Positions 880 through 64,000 of a stretch of 64,000 bases of DNA are shown piece after piece. Source of the DNA: Tragulus kanchil (lineage: Eukaryota; Chordata; Mammalia; Artiodactyla; Tragulidae). The notes under the pieces were generated by a model. It worked only from the letters and a program-made list of their open reading frames with translations, was not told the origin of the DNA and searched no databases. The first letter of the stretch is position 1, and every line of letters begins with the position of its first letter. Both the position numbers and the translations under genes were made by a program. The stretch is taken from NCBI GenBank assembly GCA_022376925.1, contig JAIOJX010000001.1, forward strand, positions 40,954,324-41,018,323, given 5' to 3'.

Positions 880-2056
880 AAAATAAGCCCTATGGCTATA
901 GTCTTCTTCCAGAATACTTTGGTTATTTTTGGCCCTTGTCATATCTATATAACCTTTTGGATAAGCTGGTCAACATCTAAAGTACATCTTGTTTTCTGTG
1001 AGGAGTTTTTATGATATTAATAGAAGTTTTTGCCAGTTAAATGTCTTTTAAATATACTCTCCAGTTTAACTTCTGTCTTTTCTCTCTCTCTCTCTGTGGT
1101 GTCTTTTGATGAGTAGAAGTTTCACATTTTAATATGATAAAATCATATTAAAACAATTTTTTTCACTTTTAAGTTTTACAGCTTTTGTACCATGTATGTT
1201 TTCTTGTACCTGAGTTAACAAATTTATTTCTCTATATGTTTTATAAAACTTATGCTATTGCTTTATCATATTTAAGTCTTTTATCTACCTGAAATCAATT
1301 TTTAAAATGTATGGCTTGAAGATTAGTCTGAATTTTTAAAAATATTTATTTATTTATTTTTGACTGTGTTGGGTCTTACTTGCAGCATGTGGTATCTTTT
1401 TGTTGTGGCATGTGGGCTTTTCTCTAGTTGAGACCCAGGGGCTCAGTAGTTGTGGCATGGCGTGAAGGATCTTAGTTCCTGAACCAGGAATTGAACCTAT
1501 GTCCCTTGCATTGCAAGGCAGATTCTTAACCACTGGACCACCAAGGAAACCCAGGTCTGAACATTTGAAAAACATATGGTCAAGGAATTGTCATAACATT
1601 ATTGAAAAGTCTGTCTAATCTTTCCATGTTATCACAGATCAAATCACCATTGACTTATGGTTCTTTTTCCTGGATTCCCCATTCTGTTCAGTTCATCAGT
1701 TTGTCTAAGTTCAGTACTGACTTAAATTTATCTGACATAATATTAAATTACTGTTTGATACCTGGCTAGGCAAATCTTCCTATTATGGTTTTCTTCTTTA
1801 TGTGTTCTGGCGATTTTTGGAAATTTGTACTTGAATATAAATTTTATAATCAGATTGTTAAGTTGCACCAAAATAACCTGGTGATATTATTTTATTGGAA
1901 CTGCACTGAATCTAGAAGCTTACAAAGTTTGGACTCTGTGTGCTAAAATAATTGACTGTACCTTCCAGGAACTAATATGTAGTGTCTTCAAGGCAGTGAT
2001 TTTGATTCTTTCCTCATTATTTTATTCTATTTGCCTAAAATACTGCTTACTGCATA
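880..2056 (-). mobile_element. Old L1M LINE, 3' part, interrupted
   Basis: Reverse-complement matches to the mammalian L1 ORF2 3' region are visible, such as the 'ttttatctacctgaaatcaa' block and 'ggaactgcactgaatct' (antisense of the standard L1 ORF2 tail). A CHR SINE at 1335-1553 interrupts it, and 3988-4640 continues it on the same strand. No frame is open. The 1279-2056 part recurs in the duplicate at 2403-3180. Confidence 0.65.
1335..1553 (-). mobile_element. CHR-type SINE (tRNA-derived)
   Basis: Complete SINE in minus orientation. Its A-rich tail is seen as TTTTTAAAAATATTTATTTA at the left and its tRNA-like head at the right ('ccactggaccaccaaggaaaccc', antisense of the CHR promoter A box). 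It is flanked by GTCTGAA on both sides (about 1327 and 1556), a target-site duplication. It sits inside the old L1M. A second, near-identical copy lies at 2459-2676 because the region is duplicated. Confidence 0.85.
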
Positions 2057-2275
2057 ATGTGTGCATGCTCAGTTATGTGTGGTTCTTTGTGACCCCATGG
2101 GCTATAGCCTGCCAGACTCCTCTGTCTCCTCTGGAATCTTCCAGGCAATAATACTGGAGTGGCTTACCATTTCCTACTCCAGACTACCTTACCAACCCAG
2201 GGATCAAACTCATATCTCCTGCATCTTCTGCACTAGCAGGCGGATTCTTTATCGCTGCTCCATCTGGGAAGCCCA
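2057..2275 (-). mobile_element. Bov-tA SINE
   Basis: Full-length-looking ruminant Bov-tA in minus orientation. It starts with the antisense Bov-A tail ('gtgtgcatgctcagttatgt'), continues through 'gtgaccccatgggctatagc', and ends with the antisense tRNA head and 'gggaagccc'. An 82-codon open frame across it is an incidental reading of the SINE. Duplicate copy at 3180-3398. Confidence 0.9.
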
Positions 2276-2458
2276 CTTAGTGCATAGCAGGGACTCAATA
2301 AAAAGCTGAGTTGACTGTTGAAGCAAAGTACACATCTATAGATGATTTGGTGGAGATTTGATATCTTTATGCTTTCCAGTTTTCTGATCCATAAATGTGT
2401 TGTTTTTATCTACCTGAAATCAATTTTAAAATGTATGGCTTGAAGATTAGTCTGAATT

Positions 2459-2676
2459 TTAAAAATATTTATTTATTTATTTTTGACTGTGTTGGGTCTT
2501 ACTTGCAGCATGTGGTATCTTTTTGTTGTGGCATGTGGGCTTTTCTCTAGTTGAGACCCAGGGGCTCAGTAGTTGTGGCATGGCGTGAAGGATCTTAGTT
2601 CCTGAACCAGGAATTGAACCTATGTCCCTTGCATTGCAAGGCAGATTCTTAACCACTGGACCACCAAGGAAACCCA
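2459..2676 (-). mobile_element. CHR-type SINE, second copy in D1
   Basis: Near-identical to the element at 1335-1553. Present because the surrounding 1.12 kb is repeated, not because of an independent insertion: the flanking L1M sequence is the same too. Confidence 0.85.
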
Positions 2677-3179
2677 GGTCTGAACATTTGAAAAACATAT
2701 GGTCAAGGAATTGTCATAACATTATTGAAAAGTCTGTCTAATCTTTCCATGTTATCACAGATCAAATCACCATTGACTTATGGTTCTTTTTCCTGGATTC
2801 CCCATTCTGTTCAGTTCATCAGTTTGTCTAAGTTCAGTACTGACTTAAATTTATCTGACATAATATTAAATTACTGTTTGATACCTGGCTAGGCAAATCT
2901 TCCTATTATGGTTTTCTTCTTTATGTGTTCTGGCGATTTTTGGAAATTTGTACTTGAATATAAATTTTATAATCAGATTGTTAAGTTGCACCAAAATAAC
3001 CTGGTGATATTATTTTATTGGAACTGCACTGAATCTAGAAGCTTACAAAGTTTGGACTCTGTGTGCTAAAATAATTGACTGTACCTTCCAGGAACTAATA
3101 TGTAGTGTCTTCAAGGCAGTGATTTTGATTCTTTCCTCATTATTTTATTCTATTTGCCTAAAATACTGCTTACTGCATA

Positions 3180-61486: not shown

Positions 61487-61601
61487 TAGAAAAAACTAAA
61501 AGGGGAGATATTGTATATAAAGACTTTTATAAAGACTATATACTATTGTATGTAAATATTTTATACTATAAAATGAAAATGATACTAAAGTGAATATACA
61601 T

Positions 61602-61807
61602 GTTTGTGTGCTGTGCTCTGCTGCTCAGTCTTGTCCAAATCTTTACAGGGACTGAAGCCTGCCAGACTCCTCTGTCCATGGGGATTCTCCATGAAAGAAT
61701 ACTGGAGTGGACTGCCATGCCCTCCTCCAGGGGATCTTCGCAACCCATGGATGGAAGCCAGGTCTCCCGTACTGTAGGCAGATACTTTACCATCTGAGCC
61801 CCTCAAT
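61602..61807 (-). mobile_element. Bov-tA SINE, D14 copy
   Basis: Repeat of 60440-60645. Confidence 0.9.
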
Positions 61808-62302
61808 GCTAACTATAATCCCAAAGTTATACATTAGGAAGTTTTATTATTGTTAGAAACCAAAAACATTCAAGGTTCATTTGGAAAAGTAAATGACAAC
61901 AATGACCAAGAAAAATCAAAAGATTAGTGAGTAGTCACTTCCTGTACTAGATGAGAATATTCTATAAATCTACTGTAATCAAATCAATATGGTATTGATA
62001 TAGAAATGAAGAAATACATCAGTGGATCAGAAAAAGGAATTCAAAAACAGATGCTTGGACATACAAGGATTCAATATAATACACAGATAGGATTTCAATT
62101 GAGTGTTAAAAGAATAGTTTATTTAATATGTAGCACATGTACCATTGGCTAGTAATCTTTAAAGATATAAAACAAAACCCTTTTCTCCAACATATCAAAA
62201 TAAAATGATATTAAAGTCAATGGGAAACAAATTTAAAAATTCTTTATATGTATAAGGCTAAATAAGTAATCTAGAGATTCTTGACCTAACCCTCTGCTTA
62301 AA

Positions 62303-64000
62303 CCAGTTGGAGAAAGAAGAACAAAAGCATCCCAAAGCCAGCAGAAGAAGAGAAATCATAAAGATCAGAGCAGAAATAAATGAGAAAGAAACAAAAGAAA
62401 CAATAGTAAAGATAAATAAAACAAAAAGCTGGTTCTTTGAAAAGGTAAACAAAATTGACAAGCCACTGGCCACACTCATTAAGAAAAAGAGAGAGGAGAA
62501 CCAGATCAACAAAATCAAAAACGAAAAAGGAGAGATTACAACAGATAATGCAGAAATCCAAAGGATTCTAAGAGACTATTATGAGCAACTCTATGGCAAC
62601 AAACTGGACAACTTGGAAGAAATGGACAGTTTCTTGGACAGGATTAATCTCCCAAGACTGAGCCAGGAAGAAATAGAAACTTTGAACAACCCAATCACAA
62701 GCTCAGAAATCGAATTTGTGATTAAAAATCTACCCAAAAATAAAAGCCCAGGACCAGATGGCTTCACAGCCGAATTCTACCAAACATTTAAAGAAGAGCT
62801 AATGCCTGTCCTTCTAAAACTCTTCCAAAAAATTGCACAGGAAGGAAAACTCCCAAACACATTCTACGAGGCCACCATCACCCTGATACCCAAACCAGGC
62901 AAAGACAACACAAAAAAGGAAAACTATAGGCCAATTTCACTGATGAACTTAGATGCGAAGATCCTCAACAAAATCCTAGCAAACAGAATTCAACGACATG
63001 TCAAAAAACTCATACATTATGATCAAGTTGGGTTCATCCCAGGCATGCAAGGCTTCTTTAACATCCGCAAATCAATCAACGTGATAAACCATATCAACAA
63101 GTTGAAAGACAAAAATCACATGATCATTTCAATAGATGCAGAAAAAGCCTTCGACAAAGTACAACATCCATTTATGATCAAAACTCTTCAGAAAATTGGT
63201 ATAGAAGGAACCTATCTCAACATAATAAAAGCCATCTATGAGAAGCCTACAGCGAACAGCGAACATTATTGTTAATGGTGAAAAACTGAAAGCATTCCCT
63301 CTAAGATCAGGAACAAGACAGGGGTGCCCACTTTCACCACTGCTATTCAACATAGTCCTGGAAGTCCTAGCAACAGCAATAAGAGAAGAGAAAGAAATCA
63401 AAGGAATCCAGATTGGAAAGGAAGAAGTCAAGCTCTCTCTTTTTGCAGATGACATGATATTATACATAGAAAATCCCAAAGACACGGTTACAAAGCTACT
63501 AGAGCTAATCAATGAATTCAGCAAAGTTGCAGGATATAAAGTCAACACACAGAAGTCACTGGCATTCCTATACACAAACAATGAAAAATCAGAAAATGAA
63601 ATCAAAGAGGCAATCCCCTTCACCATTGCAACCAAAAGAATCAAATATCTAGGAATAAACCTACCCAAAGAAACAAAAGAATTGTACACAGAAAATTACA
63701 AGACACTCATGAGAGACATTAAAGAAGACTTAGACAGATGGAGAGATATTCCATGTTCCTGGATTGGAAGAATCAATATTGTGAAAATGACCATACTACC
63801 AAATATCATCTACAGATTCAATGCAATACCTATTCAACTACCACTGACATTTTTCACAGAACTAGACCAAATAATAACACAGTTCATATGGAAACACAGA
63901 AGACCTCGAATAGCCAAAGCAATCCTGAGGAAGAAAAATGGAGTTGGAGGGATCAGCCTCCCTAACTTCAGACTCTACTACAAAGCAACAGTTATCAAGA
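62303..64000 (+). mobile_element. Young 5'-truncated artiodactyl L1 (runs off window)
   Basis: Begins abruptly inside ORF2 after old L1M text, as expected of a 5'-truncated insertion, and continues beyond the window. Sequence quality is close to a functional ORF2, so this is one of the youngest elements here. Its 3' end, poly(A) and right target-site repeat are outside the window, so the left target-site repeat cannot be confirmed. Confidence 0.88.
62307..64000 (+). pseudogene. L1 ORF2 (reverse transcriptase), frameshifted
   Basis: L1 ORF2p fragment from the region just after the endonuclease. Residues read KHPKASRRREIIKIRAEIN, WFFEKVNKIDKPLA, ITSSEIEFVIKNLP..KSPGPDGFTAEFY, ITLIPKPGKD, KENYRPISLMN, HMIISIDAEKAFDKV, and LNIIKAIYEKPTAN at about 63250. 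There the 7-base unit AGCGAAC is present twice (63251-63257 and 63258-63264). This shifts the frame, and a TAA follows at 63273-63275. In the +1-shifted frame from 63265 the domain continues without a stop to the window end: LRSGTRQGCPLSPLLFNIVL, the catalytic FADDM at 63442-63456, NEFSKVAGYKVNTQKS, YLGIN, PCSWIGRINIVKM. The first codon is an internal TTG, not a native start. Confidence 0.85.

What the first reader, a model, noticed from the sequence alone, without database searches (positions are those of the whole stretch)
1279..62649. Fourteen abutting direct duplications, all with a unit of about 1.1 kb: probable false duplication by unmerged contig overlaps
Units (bp): 1123, 1090, 1104, 1165, 1091, 1062, 1087, 1081, about 1118, about 1105, 1108, 1095, 1112, 1162. 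They sit at 1279, 7747, 10562, 12699, 15180, 20721, 32599, 35558, 37876, 40277, 49653, 51794, 56749 and 60343. The repeated sequences are unrelated to each other (L1, BovB, SINE, unique DNA), the second copy starts where the first ends, and no transposon edge or common motif marks the joints. Differences cluster at the end of the left copy or the start of the right copy. Joints are never closer than about 2.1 kb, twice the unit, as expected if each joint is the meeting of two contigs sharing about 1.1 kb. No known mutational process yields so uniform a length at unrelated sites. If it were biological it would be a new kind of fixed-length tandem duplication. About 15.5 kb (24%) of the window is affected.
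Basis: partly seen in the sequence, partly recalled or inferred. Interest (0 to 1): 0.88.

Follow-up and report, generated by a model that had tools for sequence, protein, structure and literature searches.

The report
Genome-wide false duplications from assembly software
In each of 16 randomly placed stretches of this genome assembly, as in the window itself, pieces of about 1,100 bases are written twice in a row, most likely because software failed to merge overlapping pieces, so gene and repeat counts taken from it would be misleading.

Summary
In detail: 14 abutting direct duplications, unit about 1107 ± 29 bp. They are not local. The window lies in a 3.17-Gb, 32-contig assembly. One 10-kb stretch from each of its 16 large contigs has them too, 16 of 16. 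Window and stretches give 54 units (one touching a stretch end) of 1113 ± 30 bp, range 1032–1172, and no abutting pair of 150 bp or more outside this class. About 30% of the sampled sequence is second copy. Missing bases fall almost only on the two ends that face the joint: 27:1 near the left copy's end, 23:0 near the right copy's start. Neighbouring units overlap by up to 360 bp. The giant APC exon, one open frame in mammals (recalled), is cut by the same repeats with a frame change at each of three joints. No known biological process gives this. Best explanation: consecutive consensus segments sharing about 1.1 kb were concatenated unmerged. A wtdbg-type graph node (1024 raw read bases) is a plausible but unproven source. 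Reads were not available. Not a real genomic feature.

The parts
1279..3526 (.). unit 1: left copy 1279-2403, right copy 2404-3526
   Evidence: 99.8%, period 1123-1125
7746..9923 (.). unit 2: left copy 7746-8833, right copy 8836-9923
   Evidence: 99.9%, period 1090
10562..12772 (.). unit 3: left copy 10562-11668, right copy 11669-12772
   Evidence: 99.6%, period 1104-1107
12699..15020 (.). unit 4: left copy 12699-13852, right copy 13864-15020; overlaps unit 3 by 74 bp
   Evidence: 99.7%, period 1165-1168
15175..17365 (.). unit 5: left copy 15175-16272, right copy 16266-17365
   Evidence: 98.6%, period 1091-1093
20712..22850 (.). unit 6: left copy 20712-21784, right copy 21774-22850
   Evidence: 98.9%, period 1062-1066
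32598..34774 (.). unit 7: left copy 32598-33685, right copy 33685-34774
   Evidence: 99.8%, period 1087-1089
35555..37723 (.). unit 8: left copy 35555-36639, right copy 36636-37723
   Evidence: 99.1%, period 1081-1084
37877..40112 (.). unit 9: left copy 37877-38998, right copy 38997-40112
   Evidence: 99.5%, period 1114-1120
40274..42486 (.). unit 10: left copy 40274-41386, right copy 41384-42486
   Evidence: 97.7%, period 1100-1110
49653..51880 (.). unit 11: left copy 49653-50750, right copy 50761-51880
   Evidence: 97.7%, period 1108-1130
51794..53999 (.). unit 12: left copy 51794-52885, right copy 52889-53999; overlaps unit 11 by 87 bp
   Evidence: 98.2%, period 1095-1114
56749..58969 (.). 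unit 13: left copy 56749-57857, right copy 57861-58969
   Evidence: 99.5%, period 1112
60343..62647 (.). unit 14: left copy 60343-61484, right copy 61505-62647
   Evidence: 99.7%, period 1162-1163
10961..14369 (-). one L1 ORF1 written as staggered pieces by units 3 and 4: C-terminal part 10961-11704, full 12065-13204, N-terminal part 13818-14369
   Evidence: Pfam L1 ORF1 domains; blastp of the parts against the full frame: 98.8% over 168 aa, 100% over 236 aa

Best explanation
The abutting 1.1-kb duplications, found in the window and in all 16 ten-kb stretches sampled from the same assembly, are most likely false: consecutive consensus segments of a long-read assembly, each sharing about 1.1 kb with the next, were probably written end to end without the shared part being merged. 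Shown directly: one narrow length class across the 16 large contigs, abutting joints without gaps or motif, missing bases on the two joint-facing ends, triplication where two shared stretches overlap, and a conserved exon whose frame changes at the joints. Inferred: that the shared stretch is a fixed number of raw read bases, the read set having a net loss of bases, so that the finished unit is a little longer. The size and narrow spread would fit a wtdbg-type graph node of 1024 raw bases, which adjacent edges share and the consensus step should merge (program details recalled). That naming of the software is a guess at about 0.35 to 0.4; the general mechanism does not depend on it.
For: Genome-wide: 16 of 16 ten-kb stretches, one on each of the 16 large contigs, hold 40 units counted as complete (one of them, in L015, touches the stretch start) plus 7 cut by a stretch end; with the window 54 units, period 1113.1, SD 29.6, range 1032–1172; every abutting pair of 150 bp or more belongs to this class. 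A SINE-bearing query gave 12 pairs of hits closer than 5 kb among 38 hit positions elsewhere, all 1063–1189 bp apart (only 40 of 12,943 candidates were scored). Error polarity: 227 difference events in 59,886 columns; in the last 15% of the unit 36 gaps lie in the left copy and 6 in the right, in the first 15% 1 and 28; leaving out 25 columns at each end, 27 and 1, 0 and 23; 42 units have a higher rate of differing columns in the outer 30% than in the middle, 5 lower, 7 tie. The middle 60% is identical in 32 of 54 units; transitions:transversions 61:70, not the mammalian excess of transitions (the comparison is recalled). Overlapping neighbours stand three times (L013, L015, L016, L017, L036 at 96–100%; L010 at 88%). 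APC: APC_basic profile positions 2–342, 52–342 and 302–342 at offsets 1111 and 1116, while a second APC-type gene (APC2 by recall) on another contig shows one match in a 1634-aa frame. In the 6-kb APC stretch three repeats lie at offsets 1111, 1111 and 1116–1117, and the open frame changes at each of the three joints, with SAMP, APC_basic and EB1_binding staggered. Published precedent for the type: homotype false duplications at contig boundaries (PMC8081667, passages).
Against: No reads were seen, so half depth and absence of spanning reads are untested. Three of six short (3.2-kb) loci around SINE hits show no 1.1-kb pair (L004, L005, L006); the other three show cut pairs at offsets 1090–1122. 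The middle 70% of the units still has 43 substitutions and 25 gaps. The APC stretch has one further frame change, near the middle of the third unit's left copy, that is not at a joint and goes with a one-base difference between the copies. Taking out 30–33% would leave about 2.1–2.2 Gb, low beside most ruminant assemblies in the table rows seen of PMC11628655 (2.11–3.44 Gb; passages), so the extrapolation may be too high or other sequence is missing. Against wtdbg in particular: PMC8178825 says a comparison suggested that wtdbg2 gives fewer artefactual duplications (passages); unit spacings are not clearly quantised in 256-base steps (Rayleigh p about 0.06 and 0.23); 3 of 37 collapsed spacings lie under the 835 bp that 1024 minus 256 raw bases would predict; 1024 raw bases would need a net loss of 7.9%, rather high by recall.
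Confidence: 0.97

Rival explanations
1. A real, fixed-length tandem duplication process that hit hundreds of thousands of unrelated sites (by extrapolation) recently.
For: The duplications are gap-free, abutting, near identical and really present in the assembly text.
Against: It would have to cut the conserved APC exon with frame-shifting copies, leave missing bases almost only on the joint-facing ends, act without motif, spare other lengths and double about 30% of the sampled sequence with hardly any divergence.
Confidence: 0.005
2. Haplotype (heterotype) duplication: the two alleles placed side by side.
For: 22 of 54 units carry some difference in the middle 60%, e.g. window unit 10 at 41120-41187.
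Against: 32 of 54 units are identical over the middle 60% and most differences sit at the joint-facing ends with fixed polarity; alleles would not come in one fixed length.
Confidence: 0.01
3. A stitching failure in another step, such as a chunked polisher, a gap filler or a merge of pseudo-reads with about 1 kb overlap, not in the assembler's own node merging (a sub-case of the same artefact class as the best explanation, so its odds lie inside those of that explanation).
For: Any tool that cuts sequence into pieces overlapping by a fixed length and fails to trim gives the same picture (inference).
Against: Joint spacing is irregular, 758 to 10,824 bp after collapsing, not a fixed chunk step; unit length varies by 2.7% as if fixed in noisy read coordinates and not in finished sequence (inference).
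Confidence: 0.3

Closest known systems
Homotype false duplication, type 'overlapping sequences at contig boundaries' (Vertebrate Genomes Project, PMC8081667; also PMC9516828; passages of both)
   Same: Same locus written twice in tandem because two assembled pieces that overlap were joined without removing the overlap; here with poor ends at the joint.
   Different: The published type has a gap between the copies and often a length near that of a read; here there is no gap at the 54 joints, one length of about 1.1 kb, and a joint about every 3.4-3.7 kb in the sampled sequence.
Duplication by failed merging in hybrid assemblies (quickmerge, PBJelly; PMC9635638, passages)
   Same: Inflated size and duplicated genes after a merging step fails.
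   Different: In the passages seen, those copies arise from whole contigs or scaffolds left unmerged or from overfilled gaps, not from a uniform 1.1-kb class.

Membership tests
Homotype false duplication at contig boundaries (VGP) | same locus duplicated, without haplotype variants | tested here: inconclusive
   32 of 54 units identical over the middle 60%, differences mostly at joint-facing ends, but 22 of 54 have some mid-unit difference; k-mer spectra of reads not available
Homotype false duplication at contig boundaries (VGP) | tandem copies separated by an assembly gap | tested here: not met
   no N in the window; copies abut within -21 to +75 bp in 54 of 54 units and none has N within 20 bases of the joint
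Homotype false duplication at contig boundaries (VGP) | length about that of a (corrected) read | tested here: inconclusive
   unit 1032-1172 bp, far too uniform for long reads; read lengths unknown
Homotype false duplication at contig boundaries (VGP) | abnormal read depth over the copies | not testable with these tools
   no reads held
wtdbg/wtdbg2 node overlap left unmerged | shared stretch is a fixed multiple of 256 raw read bases (node-len) | tested here: inconclusive
   1024 raw bases would need 7.9% net loss, SD 2.5%; three papers give node-len as multiples of 256, none as 1024 (passages); 1024 as a default is recalled
wtdbg/wtdbg2 node overlap left unmerged | spacing of nodes in 256-base steps with limited overlap | tested here: inconclusive
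   no clear quantisation; smallest collapsed spacing 758 bp, 3 of 37 below the 835 expected
Biological tandem duplication | length varies between unrelated events; differences spread evenly; coding frames spared | tested here: not met

The most novel reading that the evidence does not exclude
A chromosome-scale mammalian assembly in which a large share of the junctions between assembler segments was left unmerged, giving (by extrapolation) some 0.7 to 0.9 million gap-free, fixed-length (about 1.1 kb) false tandem duplications and around 1 Gb of surplus sequence: an assembly failure mode with a diagnostic single-peak signature that the listings and passages of my literature searches did not describe.
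Probability: 0.6. Interest if true: 0.35.

Novelty: not a real feature. Interest (0 to 1): 0.2.

Why it matters
It is not biology, but it matters for users of the data. By extrapolation about 1 Gb of this 3.17-Gb assembly would be surplus. A gene with a long exon, APC, is cut up, and others would be too; counts of repeats, gene copies, segmental duplications and variants would be wrong. The single-peak histogram of abutting self-alignments is a cheap test that could be run on every public assembly.

Tried and rejected
Unaligned bases at joints: I asked whether they are a degraded continuation of the neighbour; the script stopped with an error after 8 units and showed no clear excess, so I drew nothing from it. 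Quantisation of spacing in 256-base steps: not clearly seen. Sequence motif at the joints: none. Haplotype copies: rejected as the general cause. Naming the species and its assembly paper: searches gave nothing usable (listings only, and passages of PMC11628655); that it is a ruminant rests on my recall of how its SINEs and BovB look. RNA families: none in the window. Further single-copy genes (BRCA2 repeats PF00634, BRCA1 region PF12820, PF08374) could not be tested because the machine stayed busy. A negative-control mammalian assembly was not available; that normal mammalian genomes lack such a pattern is recalled. Of the papers listed most were not opened; of PMC10951436, PMC9635638 and PMC8178825 I saw passages, of PMC7247394 too.
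Full report
What was checked. The aligned differences of each pair were listed base by base. The window has no N, and only one other abutting repeat of 30 bp or more exists, a 67-bp pair that is itself doubled with its unit.

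It is genome-wide. The window is part of contig C1 of a 3,167,203,957-base genome in 32 contigs, 16 of which are 73–297 Mb long. All 16 hold the same kind of duplication: 40 units counted as complete (one, in L015, touches the stretch start) and 7 cut off by a stretch end, 1 to 4 joints per stretch. Window and stretches together give 54 units with period 1113.1, SD 29.6, range 1032–1172; without the L015 one, 53 with 1113.5 and 29.8. Every abutting pair of at least 150 bp belongs to this class. The 61 joints in 224 kb mean that 30 ± 4% of the sequence is second copy; in the 16 stretches alone 47 joints in 160 kb, 33 ± 5%. A query containing a SINE gave 38 hit positions elsewhere, among them 12 pairs closer than 5 kb, all 1063–1189 bp apart; the short side matches were left out of this count, and one search scored only 40 of 12,943 candidates. 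Of six 3.2-kb loci around such hits, three (L003, L007, L008) show cut pairs at offsets 1090–1122 and three (L004, L005, L006) show none.

The differences tell the mechanism. In 59,886 aligned columns there are 227 difference events. They pile up in the first and last tenth of the unit (56 and 86 events, against 5–23 in the other tenths). The polarity is strong: in the last 15% bases are missing 36 times in the left copy and 6 times in the right, in the first 15% once in the left and 28 times in the right; leaving out 25 columns at each end, where alignment edges disturb, the figures are 27 and 1, 0 and 23. These are the two ends that face the joint. Each copy is complete where it is continuous with its own side and poor where it was broken off, as expected of two separately built consensus pieces set end to end. 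Real duplications would age evenly; transitions and transversions are 61 and 70. Not all differences fit: the middle 70% still has 43 substitutions and 25 gaps, and window unit 10 has ten substitutions and a two-base gap within 70 bp in mid-unit, in what looks like a SINE; these may be polishing errors or heterozygous sites, and I have not explained them.

Units overlap. After collapsing, joints lie 758 to 10,824 bp apart; 15 of 37 neighbouring pairs overlap, by 74–360 bp, and the longer overlaps are seen to stand three times (L013, L015, L016, L017, L036 at 96–100%; L010 at 88%). This is expected if the pieces run from one shared stretch to the next and the shared stretches may themselves overlap. 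There is no motif at unit starts, joints or ends, and no N within 20 bases of a joint (window, stretches).

Coding sequence. Inside the window a single L1 ORF1 on the minus strand is written as a C-terminal part (10961–11704), a full frame (12065–13204) and an N-terminal part (13818–14369), by units 3 and 4. The stronger case is APC, a conserved single-copy gene whose last exon is one open frame of about 6.5 kb in mammals (recalled). The APC basic domain is found three times in a row at offsets of 1111 and 1116 bp, as profile positions 2–342, 52–342 and 302–342, while a second APC-type gene on contig C26, APC2 by recall, gives one match in a 1634-aa frame. In 6 kb of that exon three repeats lie at offsets 1111, 1111 and 1116–1117. 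Read on the coding strand, the open frame changes at each of the three joints (near 850, near 3310 and before 5200 of the 6 kb). One further frame change, near 4640, lies in mid-copy and not at a joint; there the two copies differ by one base. SAMP, APC_basic and EB1_binding domains appear staggered. No living mammal is expected to carry this. It is the nearest thing to a proof that the present data allow. Only this one gene was tested; others were planned, but the machine did not answer.

Interpretation. The general mechanism, segments that share about 1.1 kb and were concatenated unmerged, I hold at 0.97. The naming of the program is much weaker. wtdbg-type assemblers use graph nodes of a set number of raw read bases (recalled), and three papers give node lengths that are multiples of 256: 1536 to 2560, none of them 1024 (passages in PMC11087460, PMC7831173, PMC11931762). 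A node of 1024 raw bases would give the observed length if the reads lose 7.9 ± 2.5% of bases net, as nanopore reads tend to by recall; the missing bases at the joint-facing ends point the same way. [quoted passage not shown] A mis-set overlap parameter in the consensus step could reconcile this, but that is conjecture.

Comparison with what is known. The Vertebrate Genomes Project describes homotype false duplications at contig boundaries, tandem, with a gap and often about a read in length (PMC8081667, passages; PMC9516828, passages). The present case works the same way but fails the gap feature and has a fixed short length, so I file it as working like that type and not as a plain member. 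Searches for a description of a fixed-length, gap-free class showed none in their listings or in the passages opened (open-licence papers only; two searches returned no paper, and most listed papers were not opened).

Limits. No reads, no second assembly of the species and no control mammal were available. The surplus estimate rests on 224 kb, of which 64 kb is the window that drew attention in the first place, and would leave 2.1–2.2 Gb, low for a ruminant.

Noticed in passing
window 30125-30811 (-): Open frame with an Actin domain (PF00022, E 1.2e-46, profile positions 5-187 of 410), probably a processed actin pseudogene.
   Followed up: no
window 62262-63275 (+): 337-aa frame with a reverse transcriptase domain (PF00078), probably part of an L1-type element that reaches into unit 14.
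   Followed up: partly
window 30406-31048 and 32036-32681: Direct repeat of about 650 bp at 69% identity, 1630 bp apart, outside the 1.1-kb class.
   Followed up: no
window 41120-41187 against 42218-42287: Ten substitutions and a two-base gap within 70 bp in mid-unit of unit 10, in what looks like SINE sequence, not explained by poor joint-facing ends.
   Followed up: no
54 units of window and L009-L036: The length histogram has a steep lower side (4 units under 1080, 14 at 1080-1100), as if shorter overlaps had been merged and only longer ones failed; conjecture.
   Followed up: no
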